This document shows positions 41,323 through 63,735 of a stretch of 64,000 bases of DNA, piece by piece. The notes beneath the pieces are model-generated. The model saw only the letters and a program-made list of their open reading frames with translations, was not told the DNA's origin and did not search any database. The translations under genes and the position numbers were made by a program. The first letter of the stretch is position 1, and each line of letters begins with the position of its first letter. Origin of the DNA: Phoebastria nigripes (lineage: Eukaryota; Chordata; Aves; Procellariiformes; Diomedeidae); NCBI GenBank assembly GCA_035582835.1, contig JAYKAV010000300.1, positions 1-64,000 on the forward strand, written 5' to 3'.

Positions 41323-44300
41323 TCATTCATCCCAGGTGTTCTTGTCGGTGTCGATGGACACGCAGTTGTACACGGCGTACCGCAGCAGCTCCTCACAGGC
41401 CTTGGCCCTGTTGGGGGGACGCTGTGTCACAGCCGTGACGCGCACTGAGAGCCCCACGCTTCCCTCCCCGCGCCCACCCAGATGTCCCCTGGGGCAGGAC
41501 CTGGGGAGCCTGGGAGGGGACCCCAATGCCAGCCCCAGGGCGGGGGGAACGTCCCTGTCCCCAGCTTGACTCACGAGGAGTAGTTGGGCAAGAAGAAGCT
41601 GCAGGAGCACGTGGAGGCCTGTGGCATCAGGTCCAATGCGTTCAAGCTTGGGAGAAAGGAGAGAGAGTCAGACCCTGGCGTGGCACAGGGGCCCCAGCCT
41701 GGGCAGGACGGACTCACTTTGCCCCTTCCGGGTAGACAGTGATCTGAACCGGGAGGCGGCTCCGGCCAGTGANGAACTTGAGGAAGCGGCTGAGATCCTC
41801 TGAAGGGAAGGTCAGGGCCCAGGTCTCAGGGACAGGGACAGGACCGTCGCAGTCACTGCCATCACGGCAGGGTCTGCGCTTGCAGAAGCATCCCGGGAGC
41901 GCAGGGCAAAGCTAGGGGATGCTCTCAGCATCCTGGGAAGGGCCAGGCGAGACGAACCCAGCCGACTCCCAGGAAAGCACCCGGTGAGCATCCCCAGGGC
42001 GCAAGGCAGTGCGTACCCCGTCCTCTGGCCCTCTCCGCTGCACATGAAGAGCGGGGAAAGGCTTGGGGTCGCTCACCACTGGTGAAGTTGTTGAGTGCCT
42101 CCAAGAAGTTCCGGATTCGGGTGTCGTCGGGTGGAAAGTCCTCAAATGTGACTGCGAAGAGGAACGTGCAACAGCTTCGTTAGAAACTCNCAGCAATGCA
42201 AATTAACATGGGATACGCCCATCCCGCCCTTCTGTGAGAGCCCAGAGCGGAGGCAGGAGAGGAGGAGACCCTCCGCTCTCAGTGAGCCCCTGCGAGCCCC
42301 TGGCACCCCGAGCGGGGCCGGCACCCTGCACAAAGGCAGATGGAGAAATGGGGGTCCCAGTTTGCAGGGTGGCCATTCACCTCTGCTCACAGTTGCCGAG
42401 GACCAGAGGGACCAGAGTGGGGACCAGTGGGGTTTGCAGCTAAACCTGAAGCATCCCAGCCCTATCCAGGATCCCTCTGGCCCATGATCAGGGACTCAGC
42501 ACAGGACAGGATGCGTGCACAGGATGAGCATTGTCAAGGGGAGCCCCTGCCCACGCCGGGGGCTGGGAGCAGCTTTGGCCTGGCTTTGGGCACTTACTGA
42601 ACCTCTGCAGTTCGGCCACTGTGATCTCGGGGTCCCCGCAGACCTTCTTCTCCAACTGCTGCCAGGTAAGCAGGTCCAGCACAGGCTGGGGCACCACACG
42701 GAGCAGCCCGGCGCGCATGGCTGCGATCTGGGGGGGCACAGGAAGGGTCCCACATCACTGTGACGGGTCTGAGCCCAGGGCAGCCAGCCAGGGCACTGGG
42801 CACAGGGACCGCAGGACCCCAAACGGGGTCCCTGGAGCTCATGGACATCCTGGGCATGGGATGCACGGAGGAACCGCCTGTCTGGAGCTGGTTTTGGGGA
42901 CACGTTTTCACAGCCACCAACCCCACAGGTACCAGGAGGGCTTGCCACAGGGGCAGGGTCCCCTTGGAGCCACTCCAGTTACCTGCTCCTTGCTCTCCTC
43001 CAGCCTAGCCCTCTGCACCAGGCGGATGAACTCCTTGCGGTCCTCGTAGCGCACCACGATGCTGCTGCCATTGGGGATCAGCTCCACCACGTGCTGGTCG
43101 CTCCGCACCATCGTATAGGTCAGCTCTCTGCCAAACATGAACTCGAAGGCTTCCCTGTCCAGCCCCTCCAGCACCTCCAGCAGCTTCACCTGCAACCCCA
43201 ACAGGCAAAAGTCATGATGGCGGAGCCAGAGCAGCCACGGGAGCGCATGGCACTGCCCTGCCGGCCCCCAGCCCCGCTCACCAGCTCCGAGTCCACGGCG
43301 GCGAAGTCCTTGCTCCAGCTGACCTCCTCCCCTGCCAGCTGCTTCCACACCAGGGCCGGCAGAGCCAGGATCTACCAGGGGGAGCCAAGATGCGCGTCCT
43401 CCCCATGTCCCTCCTTCACCCGAGGGCAGCCCCTCTGCCTAAGACACGGTGGCCCCTGCCAAGCCCCCTCGCCGGCCAGGGAGGCTCTGCTGTGCTCACC
43501 AGAAACTCCTTGCTCCTCAGGGCTGCTCCCATCAGCTGCCCGATCCACTCGTACTTGGGGAAGTCCTTGCAGGAGGGGTTGGGGACGTACATGTCCCTGG
43601 TGTCACTGCTGCTGTTACCCTGTGGGAGAGAGGCTTAGGACCCACAGACACAGCTGTGACCAGCCCAGCATGGTCCCTCCTGCAGCCTCCCTCTCCATCA
43701 CCCCTCCATCTGCCTCTCCCGCCCGCCTTTACACCCCTCCAGGAGATCTCCACCACCCAGGTACAAGCATCGCCTCTCCAGCCAATAGCCCTGCAAGCAT
43801 TAAGACAGGACTAACACCCCAAAATATTGCAACTGAGGGACAAGCTCCCAGGCTCTGCTGGATTTCCCGCCGGGGCCAGGACAGGCGGACAGTGGGGTGC
43901 CAAACCTGGTTGGAGGTGCGCACGAAGAAGGGCAGGGGCACGGGGACATCGCCCGAGCTGGGACACAGCTCCTCTGACACATCTGACAGGCTGTCCCGAA
44001 AACCACCACCTGCAGTGGGGGCAGAGGCTGGTTAGTGCCTGACACATCGGGGCCAGACACTGAGCTGCAGGATCTAGCCAAGCCACCCCTCTCCGTGTGG
44101 CAGGGGCAGCGCTGGGGGCATAGGGGAGATGCAGGGACCACCCTACTTGTGCAGAGCAGGGCTGCCTCCCGCAGAGCAGCCGGGACAGTGTGGGCACCCC
44201 ACCGCAGTGGGTGACCCACCGAGCTGCCCCCCAGCATGAGAAAGCCCAAGGGAGAGCCCCAGGTGGGAGGGGAGAGCTCTCACCATTGTCGATGATGCCC

Positions 44301-63400: not shown

Positions 63401-63735
63401 AGAACCAGGGGCAGACAGGCTAACGGGTCAGAGAAGGCAAGTCCATGTCCTGCTTGCCTTGGTCTTGCCCTGTTTTCTGCTTTGTGCAGGCTTATCTAGG
63501 ACAAGACTGTGCCAAGCAGAGCTATTCCCTGCTGCCTGTCTTCCCCCTCTCCCCCCAGTCTGCAGGGGACGGCTGTCTGAGCAGCCAGGGAGAGACAGTG
63601 GCTTGCACCCAACCACAGCAGAAGCTGGGAAACAGCTCATACCGAAGCTTCTCTACTGCAGCCTCATCCTGCTCCATGGGCTTGGGCTTCGCTCCGAGGC
63701 GCAGGGAGTACGTCAGATCCACCACCTGCTCCCAT
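54481..63735 (-). CDS. HECTD3: HECTD3 E3 ubiquitin ligase, copy B (5' end outside window)
   Basis: This is the conserved vertebrate HECTD3, a cytosolic HECT ligase reported to act on signalling and apoptosis proteins. Visible exons, 5' to 3', are 63643-63735, 63235-63370, 62678-62793, 62281-62394, 61780-61862, 61224-61389, 60658-60739, 59540-59722, 58803-58855, 58409-58473, 57870-57973, 57417-57536, 56975-57064, 56366-56572, 55852-55981, 55329-55403, 55013-55094, 54820-54891 and 54481-54565. They are family exons 3-21 and give 684 residues in one frame, from WEQVVDLTYSLRLG to MSPWEE. The DOC segment includes HADTYWESDGSQGQHWVRL. The catalytic cysteine lies in SSTCSSTLFLP. Exon lengths equal those of copy A except the exon with VYEGLKPSDKFEKPLDYR (53 versus 50 bases). 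The sequence is much nearer to human HECTD3 than copy A is. Exons 1-2 lie to the right of the window. Confidence 0.95.
54820..54891 (-). CDS. HECTD3: HECTD3 copy B catalytic-cysteine exon
   Basis: A 72-base exon encodes SETTDALPESSTCSSTLF and then LPNYA. It matches the active-site region of mammalian HECTD3 almost residue for residue. The donor is GCCAC|GTAAGT. It is the direct counterpart of copy A 41575-41646. Confidence 0.94.
55557..55572 (+). repeat. (TCAG)4 microsatellite
   Basis: Four perfect TCAG units lie in an intron of HECTD3 copy B. Confidence 0.8.
58856..59539 (-). other. HECTD3: HECTD3 copy B intron between exons 10 and 11
   Basis: An intron of about 0.68 kb. Introns of copy B are generally longer and less GC-rich than those of copy A. 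No repeat or RNA gene is recognised. Confidence 0.7.
59723..60657 (-). other. HECTD3: HECTD3 copy B intron between exons 9 and 10
   Basis: An intron of about 0.94 kb with no recognised feature. Open frames on the plus strand are short and unlike known proteins. Confidence 0.7.
61224..63370 (-). other. HECTD3: DOC-domain exons of HECTD3 copy B
   Basis: Exons 63235-63370, 62678-62793, 62281-62394, 61780-61862 and 61224-61389 encode FVPPTWTYECDEDLVHFLY, the APC10/DOC-like fold with LLLTVDTTDENFMPKRVAV and IGDVCVLEDMTTHLPVIEI, then DDGIDVRLRGIKIKSSRQ. These agree closely with the vertebrate HECTD3 substrate-binding half, unlike the matching exons of copy A. Confidence 0.88.
61562..61587. repeat. 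Poly-A tract (26 A) in HECTD3 copy B intron
   Basis: A simple A run lies between exons 7 and 8 of copy B. It marks the only long homopolymer in the GC-rich half of the window. Confidence 0.85.

What the first reader, a model, noticed from the sequence alone, without database searches (positions are those of the whole stretch)
41323..63735. Tandem duplication of HECTD3: two intron-bearing HECT ligase genes next to EIF2B3
Two HECTD3-type genes lie head to tail on the minus strand. Eighteen of 19 shared coding exons have identical lengths and all compared introns have the same phase, so the copy arose by DNA duplication, not retroposition. Mammals have a single HECTD3 beside EIF2B3 as far as I know. 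Copy A is very GC-rich, the kind of avian gene often missing from assemblies, so it may be undescribed.
Basis: partly seen in the sequence, partly recalled or inferred. Interest (0 to 1): 0.8.

Follow-up and report, generated by a model that had tools for sequence, protein, structure and literature searches.

The report
Ancient HECTD3 twin, shared first exon
This bird carries two neighbouring copies of a ubiquitin-ligase gene; the second copy is old, found in many birds and in crocodilians and fast-changing, yet its first exon is almost letter-for-letter the same as that of the original, which points to DNA being copied from one gene to the other.

Summary
Two complete 21-exon HECTD3-type genes lie head to tail between EIF2B3 and UROD. 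Copy B (54481-64740; exons 1-2 just past the window) is the conserved HECTD3. Copy A (41323-49893) is an intact 844-residue paralog; 18 of 19 exons shared in the window have equal length, so it is a DNA-level duplication. Databases already hold copy A, often as 'HECTD3-like', from many bird orders, and a crocodilian relative; my searches found no paper on it. Bird and crocodilian A form a clade (100/100) and a bird-only duplication is rejected, so it predates the bird-crocodile split; how much earlier is unresolved. Copy A changes much faster than copy B but keeps the catalytic cysteine (66 of 66 rows covering it). Unexpectedly, exon 1 of the two copies is identical at 320 of 321 bases and 67 of 67 four-fold sites, while exons 2-21 average 77%. 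Recurrent gene conversion at this CpG-island exon is the best explanation. That copy A is an active ligase with changed targets is inferred.

The parts
41323..49893 (-). HECTD3-like copy A: complete gene, 21 coding exons, 844 aa, intact frame (one N at 41773)
   Evidence: Spliced alignment to the Gavia and Morphnus copy-A proteins, introns GT-AG
49573..49893 (-). Copy A exon 1 (321 nt), 320 of 321 aligned bases identical to copy B exon 1; the identity runs 16 nt upstream of ATG and 3 nt into intron 1
49401..50200 (.). CpG island around copy A exon 1 (GC 0.69-0.81, CpG o/e 0.76-1.02 in 200-nt steps)
47243..48250 (-). Copy A exons 4-6, most of the DOC/APC10-type domain (Pfam PF03256 residues 230-354; the domain runs on into exon 7 and the start of exon 8)
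   Evidence: Pfam E 2.5e-09; exon map
41323..43619 (-). Copy A exons 14-21, the HECT domain (Pfam PF00632, residues 562-832); catalytic cysteine in exon 20 (41646-41575)
   Evidence: Pfam E 8.9e-54; exon map; cysteine aligned
42983..44009 (-). Copy A exons 13-16, unusually similar to copy B (four-fold sites 48 of 60 identical against 79 of 143 in the other compared exons); possible older conversion
54481..63735 (-). HECTD3 copy B, exons 3-21 (exons 1-2 follow at contig 64740-64417 and 64325-64165, outside the window)
   Evidence: 98.5% identical to Aythya HECTD3 over 684 residues
40304..40450 (-). EIF2B3 first coding exon, about 870 nt downstream of the copy A stop
   Evidence: eIF2B gamma, E 1.4e-25

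Best explanation
Copy A is an old tandem paralog of HECTD3 (call it HECTD3L). SHOWN: the gene is complete and intact; relatives occur in many bird orders and in two crocodilians; bird and crocodilian A form one clade; A changes far faster than B while the catalytic cysteine is kept in every row that covers it; exon 1 of A and B is practically identical in DNA in this bird. INFERRED: (1) a DNA duplication before the bird-crocodile split placed a second HECTD3 between HECTD3 and EIF2B3; (2) B kept the ancestral role and A diverged, with its DOC substrate-binding segment and the segment after it among the most changed, so A is most likely still a HECT ubiquitin ligase but with changed targets; (3) exon 1 is repeatedly overwritten from one copy to the other by ectopic gene conversion, probably mostly B to A, started by recombination at the CpG island over exon 1. 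Conversion stops at the exon edges because the flanking DNA has diverged too far to pair, so two otherwise different ligases keep the same N-terminal segment.
For: Structure. Neighbours. Spread: 76 of the 120 listed matches are, by my sorting on identity and name, bird copy A (several species have more than one row), from palaeognaths, fowl and many Neoaves orders; crocodilian HECTD3-like from Crocodylus porosus and Alligator sinensis. Tree: bird A + crocodilian A 100/100, and 100/99 with exons 1 and 13-16 removed. AU tests reject bird-only duplication (p 2.9e-5) and crocodile-only duplication (p 1.1e-4), also with those exons removed (p 1e-7; p 1.7e-8); the groups were named after a first tree. 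Eight residues are shared only by bird A and crocodilian A at a 90% threshold (5 at 95%), against 0 in each of six control pairings. Rate: copy A window bird vs goose 83.3%, copy B window bird vs duck 98.5%. Constraint: catalytic Cys in 66 of 66 copy-A rows that align there (10 of 76 rows do not reach it). Of 302 positions invariant in 21 HECTD3 rows, 147 vary within bird A and 5 are fixed differently. Exon 1: 320/321 bases identical against 0.770 for exons 2-21; 67/67 four-fold and 36/36 other degenerate codons identical, chance about 1e-21 for the four-fold sites at that base make-up. Exon 1 is otherwise a fast part of HECTD3: duck vs turtle 60% in exon 1 but 89-94% elsewhere; window A vs duck B 98% in exon 1 but 62-64% in exon 2, exons 3-12 and exons 17-21, and 83% in exons 13-16. 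Ficedula B and the Mimus, Turdus and Catharus A proteins (5 rows) share ALPPALCY, which is in none of the other 58 of 63 rows that match the exon-1 motif. CpG islands at both exon 1s; zebra finch recombination is enriched at CpG islands (PMC12047795, abstract and passages).
Against: No expression, ubiquitination or population data were available here. Conversion is inferred from one genome at DNA level; other birds were seen only as proteins, and copy B exon 1 only in this bird, the duck and the flycatcher. Copy A exon 1 is not the same everywhere: bamboo-partridge A is 88% identical to duck B there (92/104), and pheasant and cuckoo rows also differ; whether their own copy B changed too is unknown. 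Mean non-crossover tract length in zebra finch is about 32 bp, far shorter than this 340-bp tract, so long or repeated events are needed. Mixing of bird A and B by conversion biases trees: on whole proteins a duplication before the turtle split (p 0.039) and before crown amniotes (p 0.015) looked rejected, before squamates not (p 0.13); with exons 1 and 13-16 removed, the archosaur stem itself is mildly rejected (p 0.03) and placements before the turtle or squamate split are not (p 0.38 each). No residue is shared by archosaur A and B alone. Exons 13-16 alone do not resolve the relation. Long branches of A could attract each other. The Ficedula model (P0175) has a frameshifted stretch after exon 1, so its link of exon 1 to copy B is not clean.
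Confidence: 0.76

Rival explanations
1. Exon 1 identity without ongoing conversion: a single old conversion, followed by extreme purifying selection on exon 1 (protein and synonymous sites) in both copies.
For: Exon 1 protein is nearly the same across distant birds in copy A (window vs ostrich 105/107) and in the duck copy B. Its third positions in copy A are 98% G or C.
Against: Exon 1 is only 60-65% identical between duck and turtle or lizard, so it is not intrinsically ultraconserved. All 67 four-fold sites agree although G and C are used about equally. At a recalled avian neutral rate of about 0.002 per site per My, zero differences put the last exchange within roughly 11 My (inference).
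Confidence: 0.14
2. The exon 1 identity is an assembly artefact: one copy's GC-rich exon 1 was placed at both loci.
For: The region is GC-rich and the contig has scattered single N bases and a gap at 70837-75674. Two palaeognath copy-B models lack a proper exon 1 (P0114, P0176), so assemblies or models do fail here.
Against: Both copies have their own unique 5' flank and intron 1, with start codon and splice donor in frame, and they differ by one base and one GCC codon. Copy-A proteins of many other birds carry nearly the same exon 1 and the duck copy-B protein carries it too. Two truly diverged exons would not be merged by an assembler (general knowledge, not tested).
Confidence: 0.08
3. Copy A is decaying: a fast-changing duplicate under weak or no constraint.
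For: About half of the otherwise invariant positions vary within bird copy A (147 of 302). DOC, the following segment and the C-lobe diverge most.
Against: Full-length predicted proteins in palaeognaths, fowl and Neoaves. Catalytic Cys kept in 66 of 66 rows that reach it. The HECT N-lobe is 85-88% identical between the window and ostrich, goose and bamboo-partridge copies A, against 70-79% in DOC and mid segments. Splice sites and exon lengths kept.
Confidence: 0.08
4. Independent duplications in birds and in crocodilians, drawn together by long-branch attraction.
For: Both clades sit on long stems (0.22 and 0.28), and the shared-residue signal is modest: eight residues at a 90% threshold, five at 95%.
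Against: AU tests reject both independent placements, also without exons 1 and 13-16. No residues are shared only by A and B of the same lineage.
Confidence: 0.07

Closest known systems
HECTD3 (human, 861 aa; PDB 9R85, 9R8T, 9R94)
   Same: Same DOC/APC10-type domain, HECT domain and catalytic cysteine (position 823 in mammalian numbering); copy B is its ortholog and copy A its paralog.
   Different: Copy A is about 61% identical to a primate HECTD3 overall, 51% in the DOC segment and 76% in the HECT N-lobe (segment limits recalled); it sits between HECTD3 and EIF2B3.
Avian and crocodilian 'HECTD3-like' database entries (e.g. P0002 Gavia stellata, P0089 Alligator sinensis)
   Same: The Gavia entry is the copy-A ortholog (94% identical over 843 residues); the crocodilian entries are its sister group.
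   Different: They look like automatic annotations; in the listings and abstracts searched I found no study of them.
Concerted evolution of tandem paralogs by gene conversion (recalled as a general phenomenon)
   Same: Near-identity of one segment between otherwise diverged neighbours, sharp edges where homology ends, GC-rich segment.
   Different: Here exactly the first exon, within a CpG island, is homogenised while 20 exons and the upstream DNA are not.
GC-rich 'hidden' bird genes (PMC8449477, passages seen)
   Same: GC-rich and fast-evolving protein in birds.
   Different: Copy A is not a missing ortholog but an extra paralog; that paper's main text does not mention HECTD3.

Membership tests
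HECTD3 family | HECT domain | tested here: met
   PF00632 E 8.9e-54 in A, 4.8e-59 in B
HECTD3 family | DOC/APC10-type domain upstream of HECT | tested here: met
   PF03256 E 2.5e-09 in A, 1.1e-13 in B; weaker in A
HECTD3 family | Catalytic cysteine in T-C context | tested here: met
   C in 66 of 66 copy-A rows that align at the site, 10 further rows of 76 do not reach it
HECTD3 family | Exon-intron plan shared with the HECTD3 ortholog beside it | tested here: met
   21 exons in both copies, same phases; 18 of 19 exons shared in the window equal; over all 21, exon 1 and exon 11 differ by one codon
HECTD3 family | Position beside UROD and EIF2B3 | tested here: met
   EIF2B3 - A - B - UROD; the mammalian order is recalled
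HECTD3 family | Ubiquitin ligase activity | not testable with these tools
   No biochemical data
One-to-one HECTD3 ortholog (copy A) | Groups with HECTD3 orthologs of its own lineage | tested here: not met
   Bird A groups with crocodilian A, not with bird B: copy A is a paralog
Gene conversion tract | Synonymous-site identity far above the rest of the gene | tested here: met
   67/67 four-fold sites in exon 1 against 127/203 in exons 3-21 without exon 11 and 9/13 in exon 2
Gene conversion tract | Lineage-specific changes shared by both copies | tested here: inconclusive
   One residue change shared by Ficedula B and the Mimus, Turdus and Catharus A proteins; the Ficedula model is imperfect

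The most novel reading that the evidence does not exclude
Throughout bird history the first exon of HECTD3 and of its ancient, fast-evolving paralog has been kept nearly identical by recurrent gene conversion at a CpG-island recombination hotspot, so that birds maintain two ligases with one shared N-terminal module and diverging target-recognition domains. If general, CpG-island first exons of tandem paralogs in animals without PRDM9 would be systematically homogenised.
Probability: 0.38. Interest if true: 0.62.

Novelty: new member of a known kind. Interest (0 to 1): 0.46.

Why it matters
HECTD3 is linked by mammalian papers in the search listing (titles and abstract openings) to inflammation, virus-induced responses and T-cell signalling, so a second, fast-changing HECTD3-type ligase in birds and crocodilians is a candidate for lineage-specific change in those pathways, and bird results for 'HECTD3' could mix two genes. 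The exon-1 pattern is a clean test case for gene conversion at CpG islands in birds. It also warns that trees and probes using exon 1 will confuse the two genes.

Tried and rejected
A structure model of Gavia copy A (35-row alignment) was poor (mean pLDDT 56), so no fold search was run. One scan of viral contigs for related DNA found no relative. Origin by retroposition: rejected, introns kept. Duplication carrying part of UROD upstream of copy A: translated comparison of the stretch between the genes with the UROD stretch gave only weak matches (best E 0.009). GC saturation as cause of exon 1 identity: rejected, chance about 1e-21. The whole-protein tree suggested an archosaur-stem duplication (97/98); that reading was withdrawn because exon 1 is converted. 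Trees used hand-picked rows: 47 of the 120 listed proteins plus two window proteins, 33 proteins plus the two, 31 plus the two. The emu copy-B model P0114 was kept but left out of the tallies and of the trees, because it is partly mis-modelled. One search counted only the strict STCS motif (54 of 76 rows); one search replaced it by alignment (66 of 66 rows that reach the site; some have C-T-C-S or T-C-A). Synonymous rates in other birds could not be computed: I had no other bird DNA.
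Full report
WHAT IS THERE. Spliced alignment with a home-made aligner finds two HECTD3-type genes on the minus strand. Copy A has 21 coding exons (49893..41323), an intact 844-residue frame and GT-AG introns; one base is unread (N at 41773). Copy B has exons 3-21 in the window (63735..54481). Of the 19 exons shared in the window 18 have equal lengths; exon 11 is 50 against 53 nt. When the whole-genome search answered, the window proved to be the first 64 kb of contig C292 (2.13 Mb) of a 1.2-Gb assembly. Copy B's exon 1 (64740-64417) and exon 2 (64325-64165) lie just past the window edge, so copy B is complete as well.

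SURROUNDINGS. EIF2B3 starts about 870 nt downstream of copy A on the same strand (40450-40304; further exon). UROD lies divergently upstream of copy B (reading frame at contig 65882-66223). Copy B therefore holds the HECTD3 place next to UROD, and copy A is the extra gene beside EIF2B3. That humans have EIF2B3 - HECTD3 - UROD is recalled, not tested. A search of the whole genome with a copy-A protein gives 34 matches, 33 on this contig and one distant HECT match elsewhere. A songbird protein model (P0001, Mimus) that runs from the last copy-B exons into copy A exon 1 shows the same order in another bird.

WHO ELSE HAS IT. Of the best 120 of 428 protein matches to copy A I sorted 76 rows as bird copy A by identity and name; several species have more than one row. 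They include ostrich, rhea, tinamou, kiwi, goose, pheasants and quails, pigeon, cuckoo, crane, hoatzin, shorebirds, loon, penguin, storks, cormorants, pelican, raptors, owls, woodpeckers, falcons, parrots, hummingbird and songbirds. They are labelled HECTD3-like or HECTD3, a few only hypothetical or uncharacterized. Crocodylus porosus and Alligator sinensis have a HECTD3-like protein. Judged by identity and name, no turtle, lizard, mammal, amphibian or fish row among the best 120 of the three searches looks like copy A; 18 such rows were placed in the trees and fell outside it. Only the best 120 rows of each search were shown and the database is clustered at 90%, so absence is not proved.

AGE. 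On 35 proteins bird A and crocodilian A form a clade (100/100). A bird-only duplication is rejected (AU p 2.9e-5) and so is a crocodile-only one (p 1.1e-4); on whole proteins a split before crown amniotes (p 0.015) and before turtles (p 0.039) also looked rejected, before squamates not (p 0.13). The groups were named after the first tree, so these p values are somewhat favourable. Eight residues are found only in bird A plus crocodilian A at a 90% threshold (five at 95%); six control pairings gave zero each, and no residue is common to archosaur A and B alone. Because exon 1 is converted (below) and exons 13-16 may be, the tree was rebuilt without them (33 rows). Bird A + crocodilian A stays at 100/99 and bird-only duplication is rejected at p 1e-7. 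The root of A within amniotes is then unresolved: archosaur stem p 0.03, before turtles p 0.38, before turtles and squamates p 0.38, and the best tree puts A before all other amniotes with weak support (76/75). The duplication thus predates the bird-crocodile split. Its upper limit is open within amniotes, and long-branch attraction could push it down.

TEMPO AND CONSTRAINT. Window copy B is 98.5% identical to duck HECTD3 (684 residues); window copy A is 83.3% identical to goose copy A (843 residues). Of 302 columns invariant in 21 HECTD3 rows, 147 vary among bird A and 5 are fixed differently. Between the window and ostrich, goose and bamboo-partridge, copies A are least alike in the DOC and following segments (70-79%) and the C-lobe (73-81%), and more alike in the HECT N-lobe (85-88%) (segment limits recalled from mammalian HECTD3). 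The catalytic cysteine is present in 66 of 66 copy-A rows that cover it; 10 of 76 rows do not. A W-x-W motif, in 65 of 76 bird A rows and all three crocodilian rows (two species), stands where most HECTD3 rows have R-x-R near the end of the DOC segment. It is a candidate for changed binding, nothing more. Human HECTD3 has full-length structures; a review describes the DOC domain as flexible and substrate-binding (PMC13196369, passages). The primary structure paper was not held.

THE SHARED FIRST EXON. Exon 1 of A and B aligns at 321 positions with one difference (AGG/AAG, Arg/Lys) and one extra GCC codon in B. Identity starts 16 nt before ATG and ends 3 nt into intron 1. Exons 2-21 are 77.0% identical (1677 of 2179 aligned bases). 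All 67 four-fold sites and 36 other degenerate codons agree; with the observed G/C make-up chance agreement at the four-fold sites is about 1e-21. Upstream of the tract only short chance-level matches are found. Between duck and turtle, exon 1 is the least conserved part of HECTD3 (60% against 89-94%), but between window A and duck B it is the most conserved (98% against 62-64% for exon 2, exons 3-12 and exons 17-21, and 83% for exons 13-16). Most bird A rows and the duck B row share nearly the same exon 1 protein; fowl and cuckoo rows differ more (bamboo-partridge A 92/104 against duck B), and their own copy B exon 1 was not seen. A proline found in Mimus, Turdus and Catharus copy A is also in Ficedula copy B and in none of the other 58 of 63 rows that match the exon-1 motif. 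The Ficedula model is imperfect.

MECHANISM. Ectopic gene conversion between the tandem copies fits the abrupt edges: it can only run where the copies still pair, and introns and promoters no longer do. Both exon 1s lie in CpG islands. In zebra finch, crossovers and non-crossovers are enriched at CpG islands, as expected without PRDM9, but mean non-crossover tracts are about 32 bp (PMC12047795, abstract and passages), so long or repeated events are needed. With a recalled neutral rate of about 0.002 per site per My, zero differences at 67 sites put the last exchange within roughly 11 My (inference). Exons 13-16 may be an older tract: four-fold identity 48 of 60 against 79 of 143 (Fisher p 8e-4). 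The split was chosen after seeing the per-exon values, and protein constraint is also higher there.

LITERATURE. Searches 'HECTD3' (265 papers, 30 listed), 'HECTD3 bird duplication' (1), 'HECTD3 chicken' (16), 'HECTD3-like' (0), 'HECTD3 avian' (5) and a broad one (20 listed, none with HECTD3) showed, in listings and abstract openings, no paper on this paralog. Passages of PMC8125067 and PMC9856856 were seen: the 12 of 15 places shown of the first did not include its single HECTD3 mention; the second uses a gecko hectd3 whose ortholog is on chicken chromosome 8. Subscription papers are mostly not held.

VERDICT. 'Undescribed' is only partly right: present in databases, apparently unstudied. The new element is the homogenised first exon.

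Noticed in passing
window 42983-44009 (copy A exons 13-16): Higher DNA and four-fold-site identity to copy B than most other exons; possible older conversion tract, but the protein is also more constrained here.
   Followed up: partly
window 45727-45892 (copy A exon 8): R-x-R of most HECTD3 rows replaced by W-x-W near the end of the DOC segment in 65 of 76 bird and all three crocodilian copy-A rows; possible changed binding surface.
   Followed up: partly
L009/L010, contig 70837-75674: Assembly gap (run of N) to the right of UROD; single N bases are scattered over the contig.
   Followed up: no
P0175 (Ficedula copy B protein): Database model in which exon 2 seems to be read twice, once out of frame, after exon 1: an annotation or assembly fault in the GC-rich 5' end.
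   Followed up: partly
window about 61560-61590 and 37585-37630: T-runs on the minus strand (read as poly-Phe in frame translations) within introns of copy B and EIF2B3.
   Followed up: no
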